From the NCBI GenBank assembly GCA_002841685.1, contig PHAM01000050.1, forward strand, positions 1 to 13,472: a DNA stretch of 13,472 nucleotides, written 5' to 3'. This stretch comes from Elusimicrobia bacterium HGW-Elusimicrobia-2 (GTDB taxonomy: Bacteria; CG03). The notes below the pieces were generated by a model. It ran no database searches. It saw only the letters and a program-made list of their open reading frames with translations, and was not told the origin of the DNA. The position numbers and the translations under genes were made by a program. This document shows, in pieces, positions 1 through 13,472 of the stretch (within the stretch, counting starts at the first letter, position 1; the number at the start of each line of letters is the position of its first letter).

Positions 1-301
1 AATCCTTATCTTCTTTTCATATTCTTCCCCAAAACAAATCAACCTGATAAACCTATATTTCTTCCCAGGGGGGTCACGATGTCCCTTCCTATTCCCAAAT
101 TCAATCGTTCCGCTTTTTGACTGATTTCTTACAATTTGCTGAAATATTTGGTAGCATTTTAATTATGGTGATATCACATATATGTGGCTGTAAAAGATTA
201 ACTGTTGCTACTCTATAATGAATAACTTAAAGCGAATTACTAATATGCTGAAAGTCAAAATGGATGATTTAATGAAGTAATGAGAAAAAGAAAAACTAGA
301 C
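1..301. other. Non-coding or degenerate left flank, no gene called
   Basis: A+T-rich stretch with no supported gene. On the minus strand a frame stays open from 162 to the window edge, but it has no ATG or GTG start and resembles nothing I recognise. On the plus strand a 20-codon frame (218-280) has no ribosome binding site. A loose GGG/CCC palindrome at 71-85 may be another degenerate REP-like unit. A TATAAT at 214-219 has no matching -35 box. Confidence 0.5.
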
Positions 302-357
302 CACTGGGGGCAGTATATGAAAACCAGAACCGTCCCCGATTTTTTCCCGATTTTTTT
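302..357. repeat. REP-like palindromic element upstream of the malonyl-CoA decarboxylase gene
   Basis: A G-rich arm GGGGGC (306-311) can pair with GTCCCC (332-337) around a 20-nt loop. The right side carries the 11-mer GAACCGTCCCC (327-337), which recurs exactly at 7289-7299 and inverted at 7213-7223. A direct duplication follows: CCCGATTTTTT occurs at 335-345 and again at 346-356. The G-rich/C-rich ends with a shared core look like REP units of the kind mobilised by RAYT (IS200-like) transposases; no such transposase is in the window. The hairpin plus T-run could also act as a terminator for transcription entering from the left. Confidence 0.55.
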
Positions 358-4736: not shown

Positions 4737-6584
4737 ATGGCGATCCTGGATATGATCAATTCTCCGCGCGAGTTGCGGCTCATACGCAGGGATCTCCTGC
4801 CGGGGCTCATGGAGGAGATACGGGAGAAAATAATAGACACCTGCTCTAAAACAGGCGGTCACATCGGCGGAAGCCTGGGCGCGGTGGAACTTATCACGGC
4901 GCTCCATTATGTCTTTGACTGTCCGAAGGATAAAATAATATTTGATGTGGGCCATCAGGCCTACGCGCACAAGATTCTGACGGGCCGCGCCTCGCGTTTT
5001 GAGACGAACCGCCAGTTCGGCGGGATATCGGGTTTTCCGAAAATGACGGAAAGCGTTTACGACGCCTTCGGCGTCGGCCACGCGTCCACTTCCATCTCCG
5101 CCGCTTACGGCATGGCCTGCGCGCGCGACATGAAAGGCGAAAAAAACAAAGTGATAGCTGTCATCGGCGACGGCGCCCTGACGGGAGGCCTGGCTTATGA
5201 GGGTATTAACAACGCCGGATGCTCAGGGCGGGACATCCTTGTGATACTGAACGATAACAATATGTTCATCTCGCCGCGCGTGGGAGCGGTGGGGAGTATG
5301 CTGACAAGGATATTCTCGCTGGGCATCGTGAAGAAAACGGAAGATTCCGTCGTGAATTTTCTCAAAAGGCTCAAAGTCGTGGGCCTTGAGATACTCAGGA
5401 TAGCACGCCGCATTAAAACCATACTCTTTCCCGGCATGTTCTTTGAGGAGATGGGTTTTTCCTGCTTCGGACCCGTGGACGGCCATGATCTTGACCGTCT
5501 GATATTGCTTCTCAGCAGGATAAAAAAATTCAAGGGTCCGGTTTTTCTTCATGTGATAACGAAGAAAGGCAGGGGCTACAAACCCGCCGAGGAGAATCCC
5601 GCTTCATTCCACGGTTTGGGAGCTTTTGACAAAGTGAGCGGTGATATCGCTCCGTCCTCAAAGAGCTATTCCGATGTTTTCGGCGAGGTCCTGTGCGAAC
5701 TCGCCGCGAAAGACGGTAAGATAGCCGCCATAACCGCGGCCATGCCCGCCGGCACGGGCCTTCTGCGTTTTGCCGAACAATTTCCGGACCGTTTTTTTGA
5801 CTGCGGCATCGCCGAGGAGCACGCCGTCACTTTCGCGGCGGGTCTCGCTTCACAGGGCATAAAACCCGTTGTCGCTCTTTACTCAACTTTTCTGCAGAGG
5901 GCGTTGGATCAGATAATACACGATGTCTGTCTGCAGGATCTGAGCGTTGTTTTCGCCGTGGACAGGGCGGGACTCGTCGGTGATGACGGCCCCACGCATC
6001 ACGGTAATTTTGATATTTCATATCTGCGGCTGATACCGGGTATGACCGTCGCCGCGCCGAAAGATGTGCGGGAGCTGGCGGATATGCTCTACTCCGCCCT
6101 GAAATACGGCGGCCCCGTCGCCGTGCGTTATCCGCGCGCCAAAGCGGAAGAGATGAGCTATGGAGGCGAATTCACATTCATTGAGCAGGGAAAAGCCCAG
6201 ATCCTTATTCCGGGAGGGGATGTACGCATCGCGGCGCTGGGGAGCATGGTCTATCCCGCTCTCCTGATCTCGCAGGAGCTTGAGGGAGCGGGAATAAAAT
6301 GCGGCGTTATCAACGCCCGTTTCGCTAAACCGCTGGATTTGGAAACATTAACAGAGGCGGCTGAAAATGCTAAACTCCTGGTAACGCTTGAGGAAAACAC
6401 CGCCACCGGAGGTTTCGGCTCGGCGGTGCTGGAGGAACTTCCGGCGGCCTTGCTTTCCCGCGTGCGGAGAATAGCGCTTCCCGACAGGTTTATAACCCAC
6501 GGTGCCATAGATGAACTGAAAGAGGTATCGGGCATTGATGTCTCCTCGGTGGTGAAGAAGATCAAGGGCTTTATGAAAAAATGA
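4737..6584 (+). CDS. dxs: 1-deoxy-D-xylulose-5-phosphate synthase
   Basis: Thiamine-diphosphate enzyme that joins pyruvate and glyceraldehyde 3-phosphate, the first step of the MEP/DXP isoprenoid route. The 615 residues are close to E. coli Dxs (620). The ThDP-binding stretch is clear: GDGALTGG (144-151) to ND-N (172-174), with GHIGGSLG (41-48) and VGHQAYAHKILTGR (71-84) upstream. FFEEMGFSCFGPVDGHD (235-251), KKGRGYKPAE (276-285) and the transketolase pyrimidine domain with AEEHAVTFAAGLA (359-371) follow. Glu360 matches the catalytic glutamate of AEQH in E. coli. DRAGLVGDDGPTHHG (409-423) and a C-terminal transketolase domain complete it. The ATG is 2 nt after the prenyl synthase stop, with AAAGGGAG 8 nt upstream (4721-4728). 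It shows that this cell makes isoprenoids by the DXP route. Confidence 0.96.
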   Translation: MAILDMINSPRELRLIRRDLLPGLMEEIREKIIDTCSKTGGHIGGSLGAVELITALHYVFDCPKDKIIFDVGHQAYAHKILTGRASRFETNRQFGGISGFPKMTESVYDAFGVGHASTSISAAYGMACARDMKGEKNKVIAVIGDGALTGGLAYEGINNAGCSGRDILVILNDNNMFISPRVGAVGSMLTRIFSLGIVKKTEDSVVNFLKRLKVVGLEILRIARRIKTILFPGMFFEEMGFSCFGPVDGHDLDRLILLLSRIKKFKGPVFLHVITKKGRGYKPAEENPASFHGLGAFDKVSGDIAPSSKSYSDVFGEVLCELAAKDGKIAAITAAMPAGTGLLRFAEQFPDRFFDCGIAEEHAVTFAAGLASQGIKPVVALYSTFLQRALDQIIHDVCLQDLSVVFAVDRAGLVGDDGPTHHGNFDISYLRLIPGMTVAAPKDVRELADMLYSALKYGGPVAVRYPRAKAEEMSYGGEFTFIEQGKAQILIPGGDVRIAALGSMVYPALLISQELEGAGIKCGVINARFAKPLDLETLTEAAENAKLLVTLEENTATGGFGSAVLEELPAALLSRVRRIALPDRFITHGAIDELKEVSGIDVSSVVKKIKGFMKK

Positions 6585-7255
6585 GAACAATGATAAAAAT
6601 ATGCGGCGTGACAAACGAGAAGGATGTGAATTTTATATCCATGCTGGATGTGGATTTTATAGGTTTCAATCTCGTGTCGGGATCCAAAAGGGCGGTTTCT
6701 GAGAACGCCCTTAAAAAACTCGTCTCCATGGTTCCTTCCTATATCAACTCCGTGGCTGTCATGGTAAACCCCGAATTGAAGGATGTGAAAAGGATAATAA
6801 AGAAAACGGGCATATCTTTTTACCAGCTCCACGGCGACGAGAGCGTTGATTTTGTCAGAGATGTCAAGGAGCTCGGCGCGAAAGTGATAAAGGCCTTCAG
6901 GTTTTCCGACGGGGATTCCGTGGAAAAAGTCCTGCCTTACGCCGAATGCGCGGATTATCTGCTAGTTGACAGTTTTTCGCCCGAGACGCAGGGAGGAACG
7001 GGCATCAGGTATTCCGCGGATATAGCCCGGGGCGTGAAGGGAATGGGGTTGCCCATGTTCCTTGCCGGAGGCCTCAATCCCGACAATGCCGCCGAAGCCG
7101 TTGAGGACATAGAGCCTTTTGCCGTGGATACGGCATCAGGCGTTGAGAACAGCCCGCGGAGCAAAGACATTGAAAAAATCCGCGCTTTTATAAGAGCGGT
7201 GCGCGTACCATTGGGGACGGTTCCTAATGGCGTAGTGGAAAGCCGCAAAAAATGA
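6581..7255 (+). CDS. trpF: Phosphoribosylanthranilate isomerase with a repeat-derived C-terminal tail
   Basis: TIM-barrel isomerase that converts phosphoribosylanthranilate to CdRP in tryptophan synthesis. [10 protein letters not shown] (6-15) carries the catalytic cysteine (Cys8); LLVDSF (127-132) carries the catalytic aspartate (Asp130). QLHGDE (82-87), [15 protein letters not shown] (160-174) and [14 protein letters not shown] (183-196) are typical substrate and phosphate loops. Homologues usually end soon after the last helix ([12 protein letters not shown], 197-208). Here about 16 residues are added, and the part PLGTVPNG (210-217) is encoded by a REP-like palindrome (7208-7232). The ATG at 6581 overlaps the dxs stop (ATGA). 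The ribosome binding site is weak (AAGGG, 12 nt away), and a second in-frame ATG at 6590 could serve instead. The gene overlaps trpB by 4 nt. Confidence 0.93.
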
Positions 7256-7304
7256 AAAAACAAAAAAGTAATACGCCAGCGCCATTAGGAACCGTCCCCA
7301 ATGG
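7208..7304. repeat. Perfect 25-bp inverted pair of REP-like palindromes across the trpF/trpB junction
   Basis: Arms 7208-7232 and 7280-7304 are exact reverse complements over 25 bp, separated by 47 nt that hold the trpF stop and the trpB ATG. Each arm is itself an imperfect palindrome: CCATTGGGGAC, one base, then GTTCCTAATGG, pairing throughout if G-T wobbles are allowed. Because of this symmetry, both arms read PLGTVPNG in the local frame: residues 210-217 of TrpF and 11-18 of TrpB. The core GAACCGTCCCC is shared with the element at 302-357. In RNA, the arms would form a 25-bp stem with the trpB ribosome binding region and start codon in the loop. Two REP units in opposite orientation form a BIME-like unit; it is unusual that both are translated. 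Confidence 0.85.
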
Positions 7305-8487
7305 CTATTACGGCGCTTTCGGCGGGCAGTTCGTGCCGGAAACGCTTTATAAACCCCTCAAAGAGCTTGAGGAAGCTTTTAACAGTGCCGTGTCCGACAG
7401 CGGTTTTAAAAAAGAGCTCAGTCAGCTTTTATCCGATTACGCGGGAAGGCCCACGCCGCTTTATTACGCGAAGAGACTTTCCGCTTTTCACGGGCGGTGT
7501 ATTTATCTTAAAAGAGAAGACCTGAACCACACCGGCTCCCACAAAATCAATAACGCGCTCGGCCAGATTCTTTTGGCCCGGCGTATGGGTAAAAAAAGGA
7601 TTATTGCCGAGACGGGCGCTGGCCAGCACGGCGTGGCTGTGGCCACGGCGGCGGCTCTGTTCGGTATGCAATGCGTTGTTTATATGGGAAGCGTTGATAT
7701 AAAAAGGCAGGCCGTCAATGTCCAGCGTATGAAACTTCTCGGCACGGAAATTGTTCCCGTGACAAACGGCGACGCGACGCTGAAAGAGGCCGTGAGCGAA
7801 GCCATTAGGGACTGGATATCCGATCCCGCCGGCACCTACTATCTTATAGGTTCCTGCGTCGGGCCGCACCCTTATCCGCTGATGGTGCGATTTTTTCAGT
7901 CGGTCATAGGCGATGAAACAAAAACACAGATAATGAAAAAGGAAAAACGCCTTTCTGATTATCTTCTCGCCTGTGTCGGGGGCGGCTCCAATTCAATAGG
8001 TTTTTTTCATCCTTTTTATAAGACCGCCGTAAAATTCATAGGCGTTGAAGCCGGAGGAACGGGAGGCTCTCCCGAAAACACCGCGGCGTCAATATGCTAT
8101 GGTTCTCCGGGTGTGCTGCACGGGGCTAAAAGTTATCTTCTGCAGAACCGCGAAGGGCAGATTCTTGAAACTCATTCCATCGCCGCGGGCCTTGATTATC
8201 CGTCGGTTGGCCCCGAACACAGTTTTTATCATCAATCCGGCCGCGCTAAGTATGTCACCGTTTCCAACGCTGAAGCTGTTAAAGCTTTTGAGCGCCTCTC
8301 AAAACTTGAAGGAATAATACCGGCTCTGGAATCGTCTCACGCTTTGGCTTATCTTTCCAAACTCGCTTCGAAAATAAAAAAAAGCGCGATTATATGCGTT
8401 TGTCTTTCAGGCCGCGGCGACAAGGATATGGCGATAGAGCGCGGCATGGCGGAAAGCAGGAAAAAATCTTCGCGGTGCAGGACATGA
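7252..8487 (+). CDS. trpB: Tryptophan synthase beta chain
   Basis: PLP enzyme that joins indole and serine to form tryptophan, in an alpha2-beta2 complex with TrpA. The 411 residues are of the TrpB1 type. [14 protein letters not shown] (19-32) is the normal start of the family. [13 protein letters not shown] (93-105) holds the PLP lysine (Lys98). AETGAGQHG (119-127) holds the catalytic Glu120. GGGSNSIG (243-250) binds the PLP phosphate, and [11 protein letters not shown] (313-323) and LSGRGDKD (385-392) are also present. The first 18 residues are extra: a Lys-rich leader followed by PLGTVPNG from the right arm of the inverted repeat. The C-terminus also runs some 15 residues beyond the usual end. 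The start overlaps the trpF stop, with only a weak GGAAAG upstream, so coupling or the hairpin may set its translation. It overlaps the next gene, which is not trpA, by 4 nt. Confidence 0.95.
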
Positions 8488-9935
8488 AATATAAAATCTT
8501 CGTCAGCGGCGTTCAAAAAGAACTGGAAGACGAAAGATTCGCTGTTAAAGAAATGGTCGTGGAAAATTATCTTTTAAACGAATATTTCAAAGTTTTTCTT
8601 TTTGAAGATTTGCCTGCAAAGAGCAAGTCTTCTGAAAAAGTGTATCTTCGCGAAGTGGAAGAAAGTGATATTTACGTCGGGATATTCGGAAACGAATACG
8701 GAAAAATAGATAAAAAGGGTTTATCCGCGACGGAAAAGGAATATGTAGCGGCGTCAAAATCAGATAAGGAAAGGTTGGTTTTTCTAAAAAGCGGCGATTC
8801 CAAAAGAGAAGATAAATTAAAGGCATTGCTTTCCAGAATAAGAAATAATACAAAAGGCCACTGCTATAAACGGTTTAATGCGATTAACGAATTTAAGGAT
8901 GAGCTTTTTAAGAGTTTGGTTGATTTTCTAAAAGACGAGGGGATAGTAAGCAATAACGCTTTTGATGAATCCGCCTGTAAGAATGCCAAACTCAATGATG
9001 TTGATGAAAAAAAAGTCAGATGGTTTTTACAGATTGCAAAATCACAAAGAAAGTATCCTCTCTCCGTAAATACTCCGGTCAGGGAGGTTTTTATTCATCT
9101 GAATCTTTTAGATAATAAAAAACCCACAAATGCGGGGATATTGCTTTTTGGAAAGAACCCGTCCGGTTTTTTGCTTCAGGCGAAAATAAAATGTATACAG
9201 TTTCCCGGCGCGCAGGTTGAAAAACCTTTTTCATCGTATCAGATATATGACGAGAATTTGTTTGAGCAGATTGATAAGGCGGTTTCATTTGTTTTGGATG
9301 CGATTAAGTTTCCGGTTATTCAGCAGGAACACACGGTACAGGTTAAGAGGGAGCATGAAATACCTGTTTTTGCGATACAGGAAGCGATTGCTAATGCGGT
9401 TACACACAGGGATTATAATAGTAACGCGGCTGTCCAGGTGATGGTTTTTGTGGACAGGGTCGAGATATGTAATCCGGGAAGACTGACGGATAGTCTTACA
9501 ATTGAAAAGCTAAAAAAAACCCATTCGTCGTATCCTACAAATCCTCTCATTGCGCAGCCGCTTTATCTTGCTGATTATATACAGCAGGCGGGCTCAGGAA
9601 CTACCGAAATGATTAAGCAGTGCAGGGCGAAGGGCCTACCGGAACCGGGATTTATATCTGACCGTTATGAATTTAAAACAATTCTTGCCCGGGATATATA
9701 CACTGAAAGCGTGCTTGATAAAATGGGCTTAAATGAAAGGCAGAAAAAAGCAGTGCTTTATGTAAAGGCAAAAGGCAGAATAACGAATCAAGAGTATAGA
9801 CAAATGAATAGTATTTCCAACAAGACAGCTTATTATGATTTAACAGATACTGTTAAGAAAAGTATTTTTGTAACTTCAGGGAGTGGGAAAAATACTGTTT
9901 ATATACTCAAAACAGCAGAAGTAACGAAAAGGTAA
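8484..9935 (+). CDS. DUF4062 - GHKL ATPase - winged-helix protein inserted between trpB and trpA
   Basis: No precise function is known to me. Residues 1-95 look like DUF4062: [15 protein letters not shown] at the start, then [14 protein letters not shown] (60-73) and [10 protein letters not shown] (81-90). Residues 160-400 match the ATPase part of COG2865-type proteins (HATPase_c_4): [21 protein letters not shown] (206-226), the N-box [12 protein letters not shown] (300-311), EICNPGRL (327-334) and QAGSGTTEM (368-376). Residues 415-475 look like a winged helix ([12 protein letters not shown], then TNQEYRQM and SNKTAYYDL). DUF4062 takes the place of the AlbA_2 DNA-binding domain common in COG2865. 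I infer an ATP-dependent sensor or regulator, possibly defence-linked. I start at 8484, where the ATG overlaps the trpB stop; homologues start with this I-F-V-S strand. By eye the gene is more A+T-rich than its neighbours, which suggests acquisition by transfer. Nothing ties it to tryptophan except position. Confidence 0.8.
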
Positions 9936-9986: not shown

Positions 9987-10781
9987 ATGGATAAAATGAC
10001 AAAGATAAAATTTTCGGTTTTTGAAGGCTGCGGGATTAACGCTGCCGCGCGGGGGAAAGCTCTTAACATATTTTTTGTCGCAGGAGCGCCGAATATGGAT
10101 GCGTCCGTTCAATGTTTAAGAAAACTTCCCGCCAGCGGCGCTGACATCATAGAGATAGGGGTGCCATATTCCGACCCTCTTGCTGACGGGCCGGTAATAA
10201 GAGACGCTTACGCGCGGGCTCTCGCGTCCGGCGTCACGCTCAATAAAGTGCTGGCGCTCGTAGCGGCCGAGCGCAGGAATGTGCCGGTGCCGATTGTCCT
10301 TATGATTTACAGCAATCTTGTCCTTCACCGAGGCGAAGATAGTTTCATAGGTGACGCTGTCAAAAGCGGCGTGAACGGTCTGATCATTCCGGATATGATG
10401 TATCCTTATACAAAAAATTTCGCGGCCAAATGCAGGGCCGCCGGCATAGCGTTTATACCTCTGGCCGCCCCCGCGACGGAAAGCGTCAGAATACGCGATA
10501 TTTCATTATCGGGCGACGGATTTCTTTATTACGTCAATGTGGAGGGAATAACGGGTGCCAGGGAAAATCTTCCCAAGGGCATCGCCCGGCGTCTCGCAAA
10601 AGTTTCAGCATCTTCAGTTCTTCCCGTTATGAGCGGTTTCGGCATATCACGCTCTGAACATATAAAAGCCGTGAAGAAATATGTTGACGGGGTCATCGTC
10701 GGCAGCGCTGTGCAGAATTTGCTTAACAAAGGCGAAAAACCATGGGCGCTGGTGGAGGAATTAAAATGTTCTTTTTCATAA
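9987..10781 (+). CDS. trpA: Tryptophan synthase alpha chain
   Basis: Cleaves indole-3-glycerol phosphate to indole and glyceraldehyde 3-phosphate; the indole passes to TrpB. The 264 residues form the usual TIM barrel. IIEIGVPYSDPLADGPVI (54-71) holds both catalytic residues, Glu56 and Asp67. VEGITGAR and VMSGFGIS are the usual phosphate-end loops, followed by VDGVIVGSA. The family motif TAGDP reads VAGAP here (31-35), so a commonly conserved aspartate is replaced, though the catalytic pair is intact. AAAGGA (9975-9980) lies 6 nt before the ATG; another in-frame ATG is at 9996. The gene is cut off from trpB by a 1.45-kb unrelated gene and overlaps accD by 16 nt. Confidence 0.95.
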   Translation: MDKMTKIKFSVFEGCGINAAARGKALNIFFVAGAPNMDASVQCLRKLPASGADIIEIGVPYSDPLADGPVIRDAYARALASGVTLNKVLALVAAERRNVPVPIVLMIYSNLVLHRGEDSFIGDAVKSGVNGLIIPDMMYPYTKNFAAKCRAAGIAFIPLAAPATESVRIRDISLSGDGFLYYVNVEGITGARENLPKGIARRLAKVSASSVLPVMSGFGISRSEHIKAVKKYVDGVIVGSAVQNLLNKGEKPWALVEELKCSFS

Positions 10782-12953: not shown

Positions 12954-13433
12954 ATGAAAAGAAAAAAATCATTTTGTTTTTGGGCGGCGTTTGCGGCGTT
13001 GTGCCTCGCGTCCGATTTCACTTATGCGTCTTGGGGAACATCAACGCTTAACGACGGCGGAGATATAGGCCAATACCCTTCGATAGCGATAGATGGCAAC
13101 GATAATATTCATGTCGTTTCCGTGGGATTTGGGGCTTATTACTGGTTGTGTTATGCCAAATATGACGGAAGCAATTGGACATATGAGGATGTGGATCCAA
13201 CGGCTGAGTTTCATAATTTAAAATCCCCGTCCATTGCGGTTGATGTCCATGGAAATCCTCATATCTCCTACTATGATAGTGATGATATGGAGTTAAAATA
13301 CGCTACCCGCACGGCTTCCGGTTGGGGAACACAGGTAGTGGATACAGACAGCGATGTCGGTCAATACAATTCATTGAGGGAACGGCAAATACATCGTAAC
13401 CCCTTTTATTTGAAAAAGCAATTTTTTTCTTAA
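12954..13433 (+). pseudogene. Secreted repeat protein (beta-propeller-like), broken in its third repeat
   Basis: The 159-residue frame starts with a signal peptide: basic MKRKK, a hydrophobic core (7-19) and a likely cut after TYA (residue 25). Two repeats of about 50 residues follow, each with a core like PSIAIDGNDNIHVVSV (42-57) or PSIAVDVHGNPHISYYD (92-108) and later a YAKYDGSNW or YATRTASGW strand. This resembles BNR-like or other bladed repeats in exported proteins; function unknown. A third repeat opens with DVGQYNSL (134-141) and then turns into RERQIHRNPF and a stop. In another frame, from 13378, the DNA reads GNGKYIV, close to the expected GN-x-HI core, so a small indel probably broke the gene. 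That frame also stops, at 13411. Full-length relatives carry many more repeats. A sequencing or assembly error is possible, and the window ends 39 nt later. Confidence 0.6.
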
Positions 13434-13472
13434 GCAAAGAACAAAGATCAACAGGCGGGATCATAGCAATGT

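What the first reader, a model, noticed from the sequence alone, without database searches (positions are those of the whole stretch)
7208..7304. Translated, mirror-image REP pair that could gate trpB translation
Two exact 25-bp inverted arms flank the trpF stop/trpB start. Each arm is itself a near-palindrome, so it encodes PLGTVPNG in either orientation, and both TrpF (C-terminal tail) and TrpB (N-terminal leader) carry that octapeptide. In mRNA, the 25-bp stem would put the weak trpB ribosome binding region and ATG in a 47-nt loop. A mobile repeat tolerated inside two overlapping genes, in frame in both, is unusual. It suggests a palindrome family whose translation is harmless in either direction and perhaps a new translational switch. 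The repeat and peptides are seen; the switch is inference.
Basis: partly seen in the sequence, partly recalled or inferred. Interest (0 to 1): 0.72.

Follow-up and report, generated by a model that had tools for sequence, protein, structure and literature searches.

The report
Mobile palindrome pair translated between trp genes
Two copies of a small transposase-linked DNA palindrome sit in the end of one tryptophan gene and the start of the next and are read as the same eight harmless amino acids; relatives show that they arrived one at a time and give no sign that together they form a conserved translation switch.

Summary
Exact 25-bp inverted arms (7208-7232 and 7280-7304, 47 nt apart) flank the overlapping trpF stop and trpB start, and both are translated as PLGTVPNG. 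The arms belong to a dispersed REP family with core AATGGGGACGGTTCCTATT: 33 copies in this genome, 142 in it, three congeners and a sister genus. In the sister genus two exact copies flank an IS200-like (Y1) transposase gene in inverted orientation, the RAYT/REP arrangement.

Congeners argue against a conserved switch. One lacks the palindrome at trpF/trpB. Two carry a single copy there, in the trpB leader only (and one in the trpA leader). Only this genome has the trpF arm, so only here can the long hairpin form. The junction is patched: it resembles a relative's trpB-trpA junction more than its trpF-trpB junction, and the contig switches ancestry at 7150-7156.

In-gene copies are rarer than chance (37 of 142, against 80% of random positions) and mostly use the one frame reading x(I/L)GTVP(I/N), mainly in N-terminal leaders and signal peptides. 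Intragenic REPs and Rickettsia palindromic elements are known; this is a new family of that kind. A local hairpin effect on trpB is untested, and an assembly chimera is not fully excluded.

The parts
6581..7255 (+). trpF (phosphoribosylanthranilate isomerase), with REP-encoded PLGTVPNG at residues 210-217, after the family domain
   Evidence: PF00697 covers residues 5-205; NF002298 covers 1-208 of 224
7208..7232 (+). left REP arm CCATTGGGGACGGTTCCTAATGGCG, coding in TrpF; present only in this genome among four congeners
7233..7279 (+). 47-nt loop: trpF tail (VVESRKK*), ATGA overlap, trpB start and first codons; resembles a trpB-trpA junction of a congener
7252..8487 (+). trpB (tryptophan synthase beta), with REP-encoded PLGTVPNG at residues 11-18, ahead of the catalytic core
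   Evidence: TIGR00263 match starts at residue 18
7280..7304 (-). right REP arm, coding in the TrpB leader; also present in two congeners ([16 protein letters not shown])
7150..7156 (.). ancestry switch: G003-like upstream, G001-like downstream to about 8427
322..340 (-). diverged third copy of the palindrome (ATCGGGGACGGTTCTGGTT), outside the listed genes

Best explanation
The feature is an inverted pair (doublet) of a small mobile palindrome of the REP kind, spread by, or formerly spread by, an IS200-like Y1 transposase (RAYT). One copy entered the trpB leader before or during the divergence of this genus; the second sits in the trpF tail only in this lineage. The trpF-trpB boundary was then, or thereby, rebuilt by recombination: its sequence resembles a trpB-trpA junction, which in relatives carries its own REP, and the contig changes ancestry 52 nt upstream of the left arm. 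The copies are translated as PLGTVPNG and tolerated because they fall outside the TrpF and TrpB catalytic domains and in a stop-free, uncharged frame. The hairpin in mRNA is a by-product. Shown: repeat family, translation by sequence logic, transposase flanked by the repeat in a sister genus, stepwise presence in relatives, mosaic ancestry. Inferred: mobility by the transposase, REP-mediated recombination, neutrality.
For: Repeat family: 24 exact cores in this genome against 0 in the reversed control; 33, 34, 13, 25 and 37 copies in G000, G001, G002, G003 and G004 at up to 3 mismatches. The repeat is nearly confined to this genus and its sister G004 within the phylum. Transposase link: in G004 a Y1_Tnp gene has exact AATGGGGACGGTTCCTATT copies in inverted orientation about 12 bp from each end of the reading frame. 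Four other Y1 genes checked (two in G002, one in G000, one in G011) are each flanked by their own GGGGACG or GGGACGG inverted repeats, though the DnaA_C-type Y1 genes of G000, G001 and G003 are not. In an unrelated Bacteroidales MAG (RUG12511) a Y1 gene is flanked by CATTAGGGACGGTTCCTAATG, and its own C-terminus reads ATLGTVPNVTVLREN. Stepwise gain: G002 has no REP at trpF-trpB; G001 and G003 have it in the trpB and trpA leaders but not in trpF. Patched junction: 7242-7305 is 94% identical to G001's trpB-trpA junction (E 3e-22) against 81% to its trpF-trpB junction (E 7e-12). Diagnostic sites switch from G003-like to G001-like between 7150 and 7156. Tolerance: genic copies 37/142 against 80% of random positions, and 31 of 37 in the GTVP frame.
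Against: No cognate transposase flanked by this exact repeat was found in G000 itself; its two Y1 genes lack this repeat, so mobility in this genus may be past or rely on another enzyme. No target-site duplication or clean empty site was demonstrated for the trpF arm. Only three congeners were held. The two-arm form rests on one draft assembly of 94 contigs.
Confidence: 0.78

Rival explanations
1. Translational switch: the 25-bp stem holds the trpB start in a loop and makes trpB translation depend on trpF translation or on a condition.
For: The hairpin is very stable (-66.5 kcal/mol, z -7.7), the start lies in the loop, and stop and start overlap.
Against: The second arm is missing in all three congeners, whose trpF-trpB junctions fold no better than shuffled sequence (z -1.1, -0.5, -0.2). 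No covariation can be shown. The start region is unpaired rather than sequestered (0.71 unpaired). A ribosome finishing trpF passes through the left arm, which should open the stem. No Rfam match.
Confidence: 0.08
2. Assembly artefact: the 25-bp palindrome, shared by trpF-trpB and trpB-trpA junctions of co-occurring strains, led the assembler to join pieces of two strains.
For: The contig is a mosaic of G003-like and G001-like stretches with switches at 7150-7156, about 8430 and about 10085. Both arms are exactly identical. The two-arm form is unique to this genome.
Against: Both reading frames stay open through the join and trpF keeps the frame of the trpB tail. The 7150-7156 switch is 52 nt away from the repeat. 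An extra gene (8475-9935) absent from the relatives' trpB-trpA junctions lies inside the middle G003-like piece. No second, G003-like trpB was found elsewhere in the genome. Single REP copies in trpB and trpA are independently present in two other genomes.
Confidence: 0.12
3. The hairpin is an RNA processing or attenuation element (RNase III site or terminator-like) that separates trpF from trpB in the mRNA.
For: A long perfect double-stranded stem is a typical kind of RNase III substrate (general knowledge); hairpin shown.
Against: No U-run follows the stem; it lies inside coding sequence; absent in relatives.
Confidence: 0.06
4. PLGTVPNG is a functional peptide (docking or regulatory tag) on Trp proteins, and the DNA palindrome is secondary.
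For: The same peptide is found on TrpB and TrpA in G001 and in related form in G003.
Against: G002 lacks it on both TrpB and TrpA, G000 lacks it on TrpA, and TrpF has it in one genome only. The nucleotide palindrome is conserved in non-coding copies as well, and unrelated proteins carry the peptide at leaders.
Confidence: 0.04

Closest known systems
REP / BIME sequences with REP-associated tyrosine transposases (RAYTs), Nunvar et al. 2010, PMC2817692
   Same: Short dispersed imperfect palindromes, often in inverted pairs (commonly 24-25 bp start to start), and a Y1 transposase flanked by two copies in inverted orientation.
   Different: No GTAG/GTGG tag; the conserved block is GGGGACG. The transposase falls under the NCBIfam RAYT cut-off (54.9 of 80 bits). 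Copy number is tens, not the usual more than 100.
TIRtrons / TIRYT with GGGGWSAS terminal repeats, Di Nocera et al. 2013, PMC3733652
   Same: RAYT-like genes in organisms without GTAG REPs, flanked by inverted repeats with a GGGG-type motif that form moderate families, sometimes as dimers.
   Different: Core GGGGACGG departs from GGGGWSAS at one position (G for A); here the repeat is itself palindromic and often translated.
Intragenic GTAG and CGTC REPs, PMC3733652
   Same: REPs inside ORFs, many at protein ends; tolerated in loops.
   Different: Here 31 of 37 in-gene copies use a single frame (GTVP) and many fall in signal peptides or leaders.
Rickettsia palindromic elements (Ogata et al. 2000, 2002; as described in PMC10969869 and PMC2229807)
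   Same: Palindromic selfish DNA inserted in frame in unrelated proteins.
   Different: RPEs are about 105-150 bp and Rickettsia-specific; this element is about 19-25 bp and tied to a Y1 transposase.

Membership tests
RAYT-associated REP | Dispersed short palindrome in many copies | tested here: met
   33 copies in G000 at up to 3 mismatches, 0 in reversed control
RAYT-associated REP | Y1 transposase gene flanked by two REPs of the family in inverted orientation | tested here: met
   Met in sister genus G004; not seen at G000's own two Y1 genes
RAYT-associated REP | GTAG/GTGG-type tetranucleotide tag beside the stem | tested here: not met
   Profile of 141 copies shows no conserved flank outside the 19-bp core
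RAYT-associated REP | Transposase passes the curated RAYT model | tested here: inconclusive
   NF047646 E 8.5e-15 but 54.9 bits against cut-off 80; Pfam Y1_Tnp above its cut-off
RAYT-associated REP | Inverted pairs / BIME-like arrangement | tested here: met
   19 neighbouring pairs within 250 bp, 14 of them inverted, commonly 24-25 bp start to start
TIRtron (GGGGWSAS) | Flanking inverted repeats with GGGGWSAS | tested here: inconclusive
   GGGGACGG matches 7 of 8 positions; the motif is shared by only some TIRtrons
Rickettsia palindromic element | About 105-150 bp palindrome with its own ORF | tested here: not met
   Element is about 19-25 bp
Conserved RNA switch | Structure conserved or covarying in relatives | tested here: not met
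   Left arm absent in three congeners; no Rfam match

The most novel reading that the evidence does not exclude
In this lineage a transposase-linked palindrome has become a recurrent source of protein N-terminal leaders and signal-peptide segments: the one frame reading (I/L)GTVP(I/N) is retained again and again because it is useful, and REP copies also act as recombination points that swap gene boundaries inside operons such as trp.
Probability: 0.15. Interest if true: 0.62.

Novelty: new member of a known kind. Interest (0 to 1): 0.4.

Why it matters
It gives a natural series (no copy, copies in trpB and trpA, copies in trpF and trpB) showing how a selfish palindrome enters biosynthetic genes without destroying them, and how it can leave an apparent regulatory hairpin that is probably only a by-product. 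It cautions against reading every strong hairpin at a gene junction as a switch. It also adds a GGGGACG-type REP family tied to a Y1 transposase, with a strong bias for one harmless reading frame.

Tried and rejected
A viral-contig scan for the palindrome found nothing. The genome contigs pattern scan mostly caught other palindromes; the useful hit was Bacteroidales MAG RUG12511. Rfam gave no match at the junction. Phage tblastn with TrpB found only distant TrpB homologues. Literature searches found no report of a REP in trpB/trpF and none evident for REPs in signal peptides, within an open-access library only and judged from titles and abstracts. Rejected: the idea that the trpB copy lies upstream of the true start, because no start codon lies between the REP and the GGQF motif. 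Some N-terminal calls (G001:C299, G002:C69, G004:C79, G004:C6) may be 5' untranslated and should not be relied on individually; the de-duplicated frame count (22 of 27) was made by hand.

Full report
WHAT IS THERE. The window holds a gene run in which trpF (6581-7255), trpB (7252-8487) and trpA (9987-10781) follow one another, with an extra gene (8475-9935) between trpB and trpA. The strongest inverted repeat of the window is 7208-7232 / 7280-7304: 25 nt, perfect, 47 nt apart. The trpF TGA and trpB ATG overlap (ATGA) in the loop. The left arm is read as PLGTVPNG in TrpF residues 210-217, the right arm as PLGTVPNG in TrpB residues 11-18. Translation follows from the sequence: the TrpF copy precedes the stop, and in TrpB the first in-frame start after the arm lies inside the conserved GGQFVPE motif. 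Both copies lie outside the family cores: PF00697 covers TrpF 5-205 and NF002298 covers 1-208; the TIGR00263 match starts at TrpB residue 18. In RNA the arms form a long stem, -66.5 kcal/mol, z = -7.7.

IT IS A REPEAT FAMILY. GGGGACGGTTC occurs 24 times in the 1.78-Mb genome, with 0.75 expected from base composition and 0 for the reversed control. With up to three mismatches to AATGGGGACGGTTCCTATT there are 33 copies here, 34, 13 and 25 in three congeners (G001, G002, G003), and 37 in a 0.7-Mb draft of the sister genus G004. Other families of the phylum have few or no copies, and the stricter core occurs only in these two genera. Aligned copies show a 19-bp core with pairing that runs on for one or two further variable pairs (positions -1/19 are C-G, T-A or G-C in different copies, 76% paired) and no conserved flank. 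Neighbouring copies are often inverted, 24-25 bp start to start. The core pairs through G.T on the GGGGACGGTT strand, so the palindrome is a better hairpin on one strand, which orients it.

IT IS LINKED TO A Y1 TRANSPOSASE. In G004 a gene with a Y1_Tnp domain (E 5e-13) is flanked by two exact copies in inverted orientation, about 12 bp from each end of the reading frame. Four other Y1 genes examined are flanked by their own inverted repeats with the same first block: GGGGACGGAGGTAATT (G000), GGGGACGTCCTTAAT (G002), GGGGGACGG(A/T)GGAAAGT (G002), and GGGACGGATGTGAAAA (G011); a further one (G001) shows a GGGGACG repeat on its downstream side only. G000 itself has two Y1 genes, neither flanked by the repeat of this finding, so its copies look orphaned or depend on an unassembled or foreign enzyme. 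A Bacteroidales MAG (RUG12511) has arrays of nearly the same palindrome, and one of its Y1 genes is flanked by it and ends in ATLGTVPNVTVLREN, the same translated motif. The G004 transposase is related to, but under the cut-off of, the NCBIfam RAYT model (54.9 against 80 bits).

RELATIVES GIVE THE ORDER OF EVENTS. Three congeners hold the locus. G002 (TrpB 86% identical) has no palindrome: TrpF ends AVRGS* and TrpB starts with a GTG, MKKLKSYYGSFGGQF. G003 (87%) and G001 (96%) have one copy in the trpB leader ([43 protein letters not shown]) but none in trpF, which ends AVRGA*. Both also carry a copy in the trpA leader ([24 protein letters not shown] in G001; MKSQKRIASALSGTVPNTIKFSVF in G003), where G002 and this genome have none. 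So the trpB copy is shared, the trpF copy is private to this genome, and the hairpin is new. Junctions of the relatives fold no better than shuffled sequence at trpF-trpB (z -1.1, -0.5, -0.2, against -8.3 here by the same mononucleotide shuffle).

THE JUNCTION IS A PATCHWORK. The stretch 7242-7305 is 94% identical over 64 nt to G001's trpB-trpA junction (E 3e-22) but only 81% to G001's own trpF-trpB junction (E 7e-12); G003 shows the same order. The trpF tail (GGAAAGCCGCAAAAAAT) matches this genome's trpB tail (GGAAAGCAGGAAAAAAT) at 15 of 17 positions, in the same frame. Diagnostic sites between G001 and G003 show this contig to be G003-like up to 7150, G001-like from 7156 to about 8427, G003-like through the end of trpB and the start of trpA, and G001-like again from about 10085. 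Inference: the trpF-trpB boundary was rebuilt by recombination, in which short REP copies at neighbouring junctions may have supplied homology. A chimeric assembly is the main technical worry, since a 25-bp repeat is where an assembler may err. Open reading frames across the join, the distance of the ancestry switch from the repeat, and the lack of a second trpB speak against it, but only reads can settle it.

TRANSLATED COPIES ARE A FAMILY TRAIT. With a codon-usage criterion, 37 of 142 copies fall in genes, against 80% of random positions in the same loci, so the element is mostly extragenic. Of the 37, 31 use the frame that reads x(I/L/M)(G/V/R)TVP(I/N), although five of six frames of the consensus are open (p = 6e-8 counting all; about 1e-5 after removing orthologues by hand, 22 of 27). 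Most lie in N-terminal leaders and signal peptides, for example MKRIRTVPILLVPILLLLLGTVPNRAYA in G001 and MKKQNLIKTLLKRIGTVPILSLLLFSVPVFA in G003. Other frames occur mainly at C-termini. Clear internal cases are a loop of a protein in G000 and G002 that has no such insert in G004, G005 and G006, and a mannose-1-phosphate guanylyltransferase-like protein in G003; in the latter loop G002 carries motifs of another REP family instead. The bias is best explained by selection against charged or disruptive frames; use of the peptide is possible but unshown.

MECHANISM AND RIVALS. Best reading (0.78): a mobile REP doublet, gained stepwise and reshaped by recombination, translated and tolerated; the mRNA hairpin is a by-product. 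Against a switch (0.08): no conservation, and an unpaired start region. A local effect on trpB in this strain is not excluded. Assembly chimera (0.12), RNA processing site (0.06) and functional peptide (0.04) are listed with tests.

KNOWN CONTEXT. RAYT genes flanked by inverted REPs: PMC2817692. GGGGWSAS-type TIRtrons, and REPs inside genes including protein ends: PMC3733652. In-frame Rickettsia palindromic elements: PMC10969869 and PMC2229807. The present family lacks the GTAG tag and fits the GGGG-type class best, with one mismatch to its motif. It is a new member of a known kind; the uncommon points are the dominant GTVP frame, the repeated use of the trp junctions, and the patchwork boundary.

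Noticed in passing
window 8475-9935: A DUF4062 plus HATPase_c_4 gene separates trpB from trpA here; in G001, G002 and G003 trpA follows trpB directly. The flanking trpB end and trpA start are not G001-like.
   Followed up: partly
window 7150-7156, about 8430, about 10085: The contig alternates between G003-like and G001-like ancestry, as from homologous recombination or chimeric assembly.
   Followed up: partly
window 1-98 and 13375-13472: Both contig ends match a repeat of about 98 bp found many times in G001, often near contig ends, a likely cause of assembly breaks.
   Followed up: no
window 307-340: A diverged copy AAAACCAGAACCGTCCCCGATTTTTT lies upstream of the malonyl-CoA decarboxylase gene; the GGTTCTGGTT form recurs at other loci (for example L015, L019).
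   Followed up: no
L003 392-410 and G003:C101:5589: A MobA-like nucleotidyltransferase carries the REP in the NRNRPH frame right after its LAAGFSSRM motif in two genomes; whether the enzyme still works is unknown.
   Followed up: no
L268 (G002) and L206 (G003): The same loop of a mannose-1-phosphate guanylyltransferase-like protein holds different REP families in two congeners, an apparent insertion hot spot.
   Followed up: partly
L291, L039, L042 (Bacteroidales MAG RUG12511): Arrays of an almost identical palindrome, often about 46 bp apart, in another phylum; a Y1 transposase there is flanked by it and carries LGTVPN at its own C-terminus.
   Followed up: partly
L025, L137, L138: A second Y1 transposase type, with a DnaA-like C-terminal helix-turn-helix (PF08299, tested on L025), conserved in G000, G001 and G003 without GGGGACG repeats beside it.
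   Followed up: no
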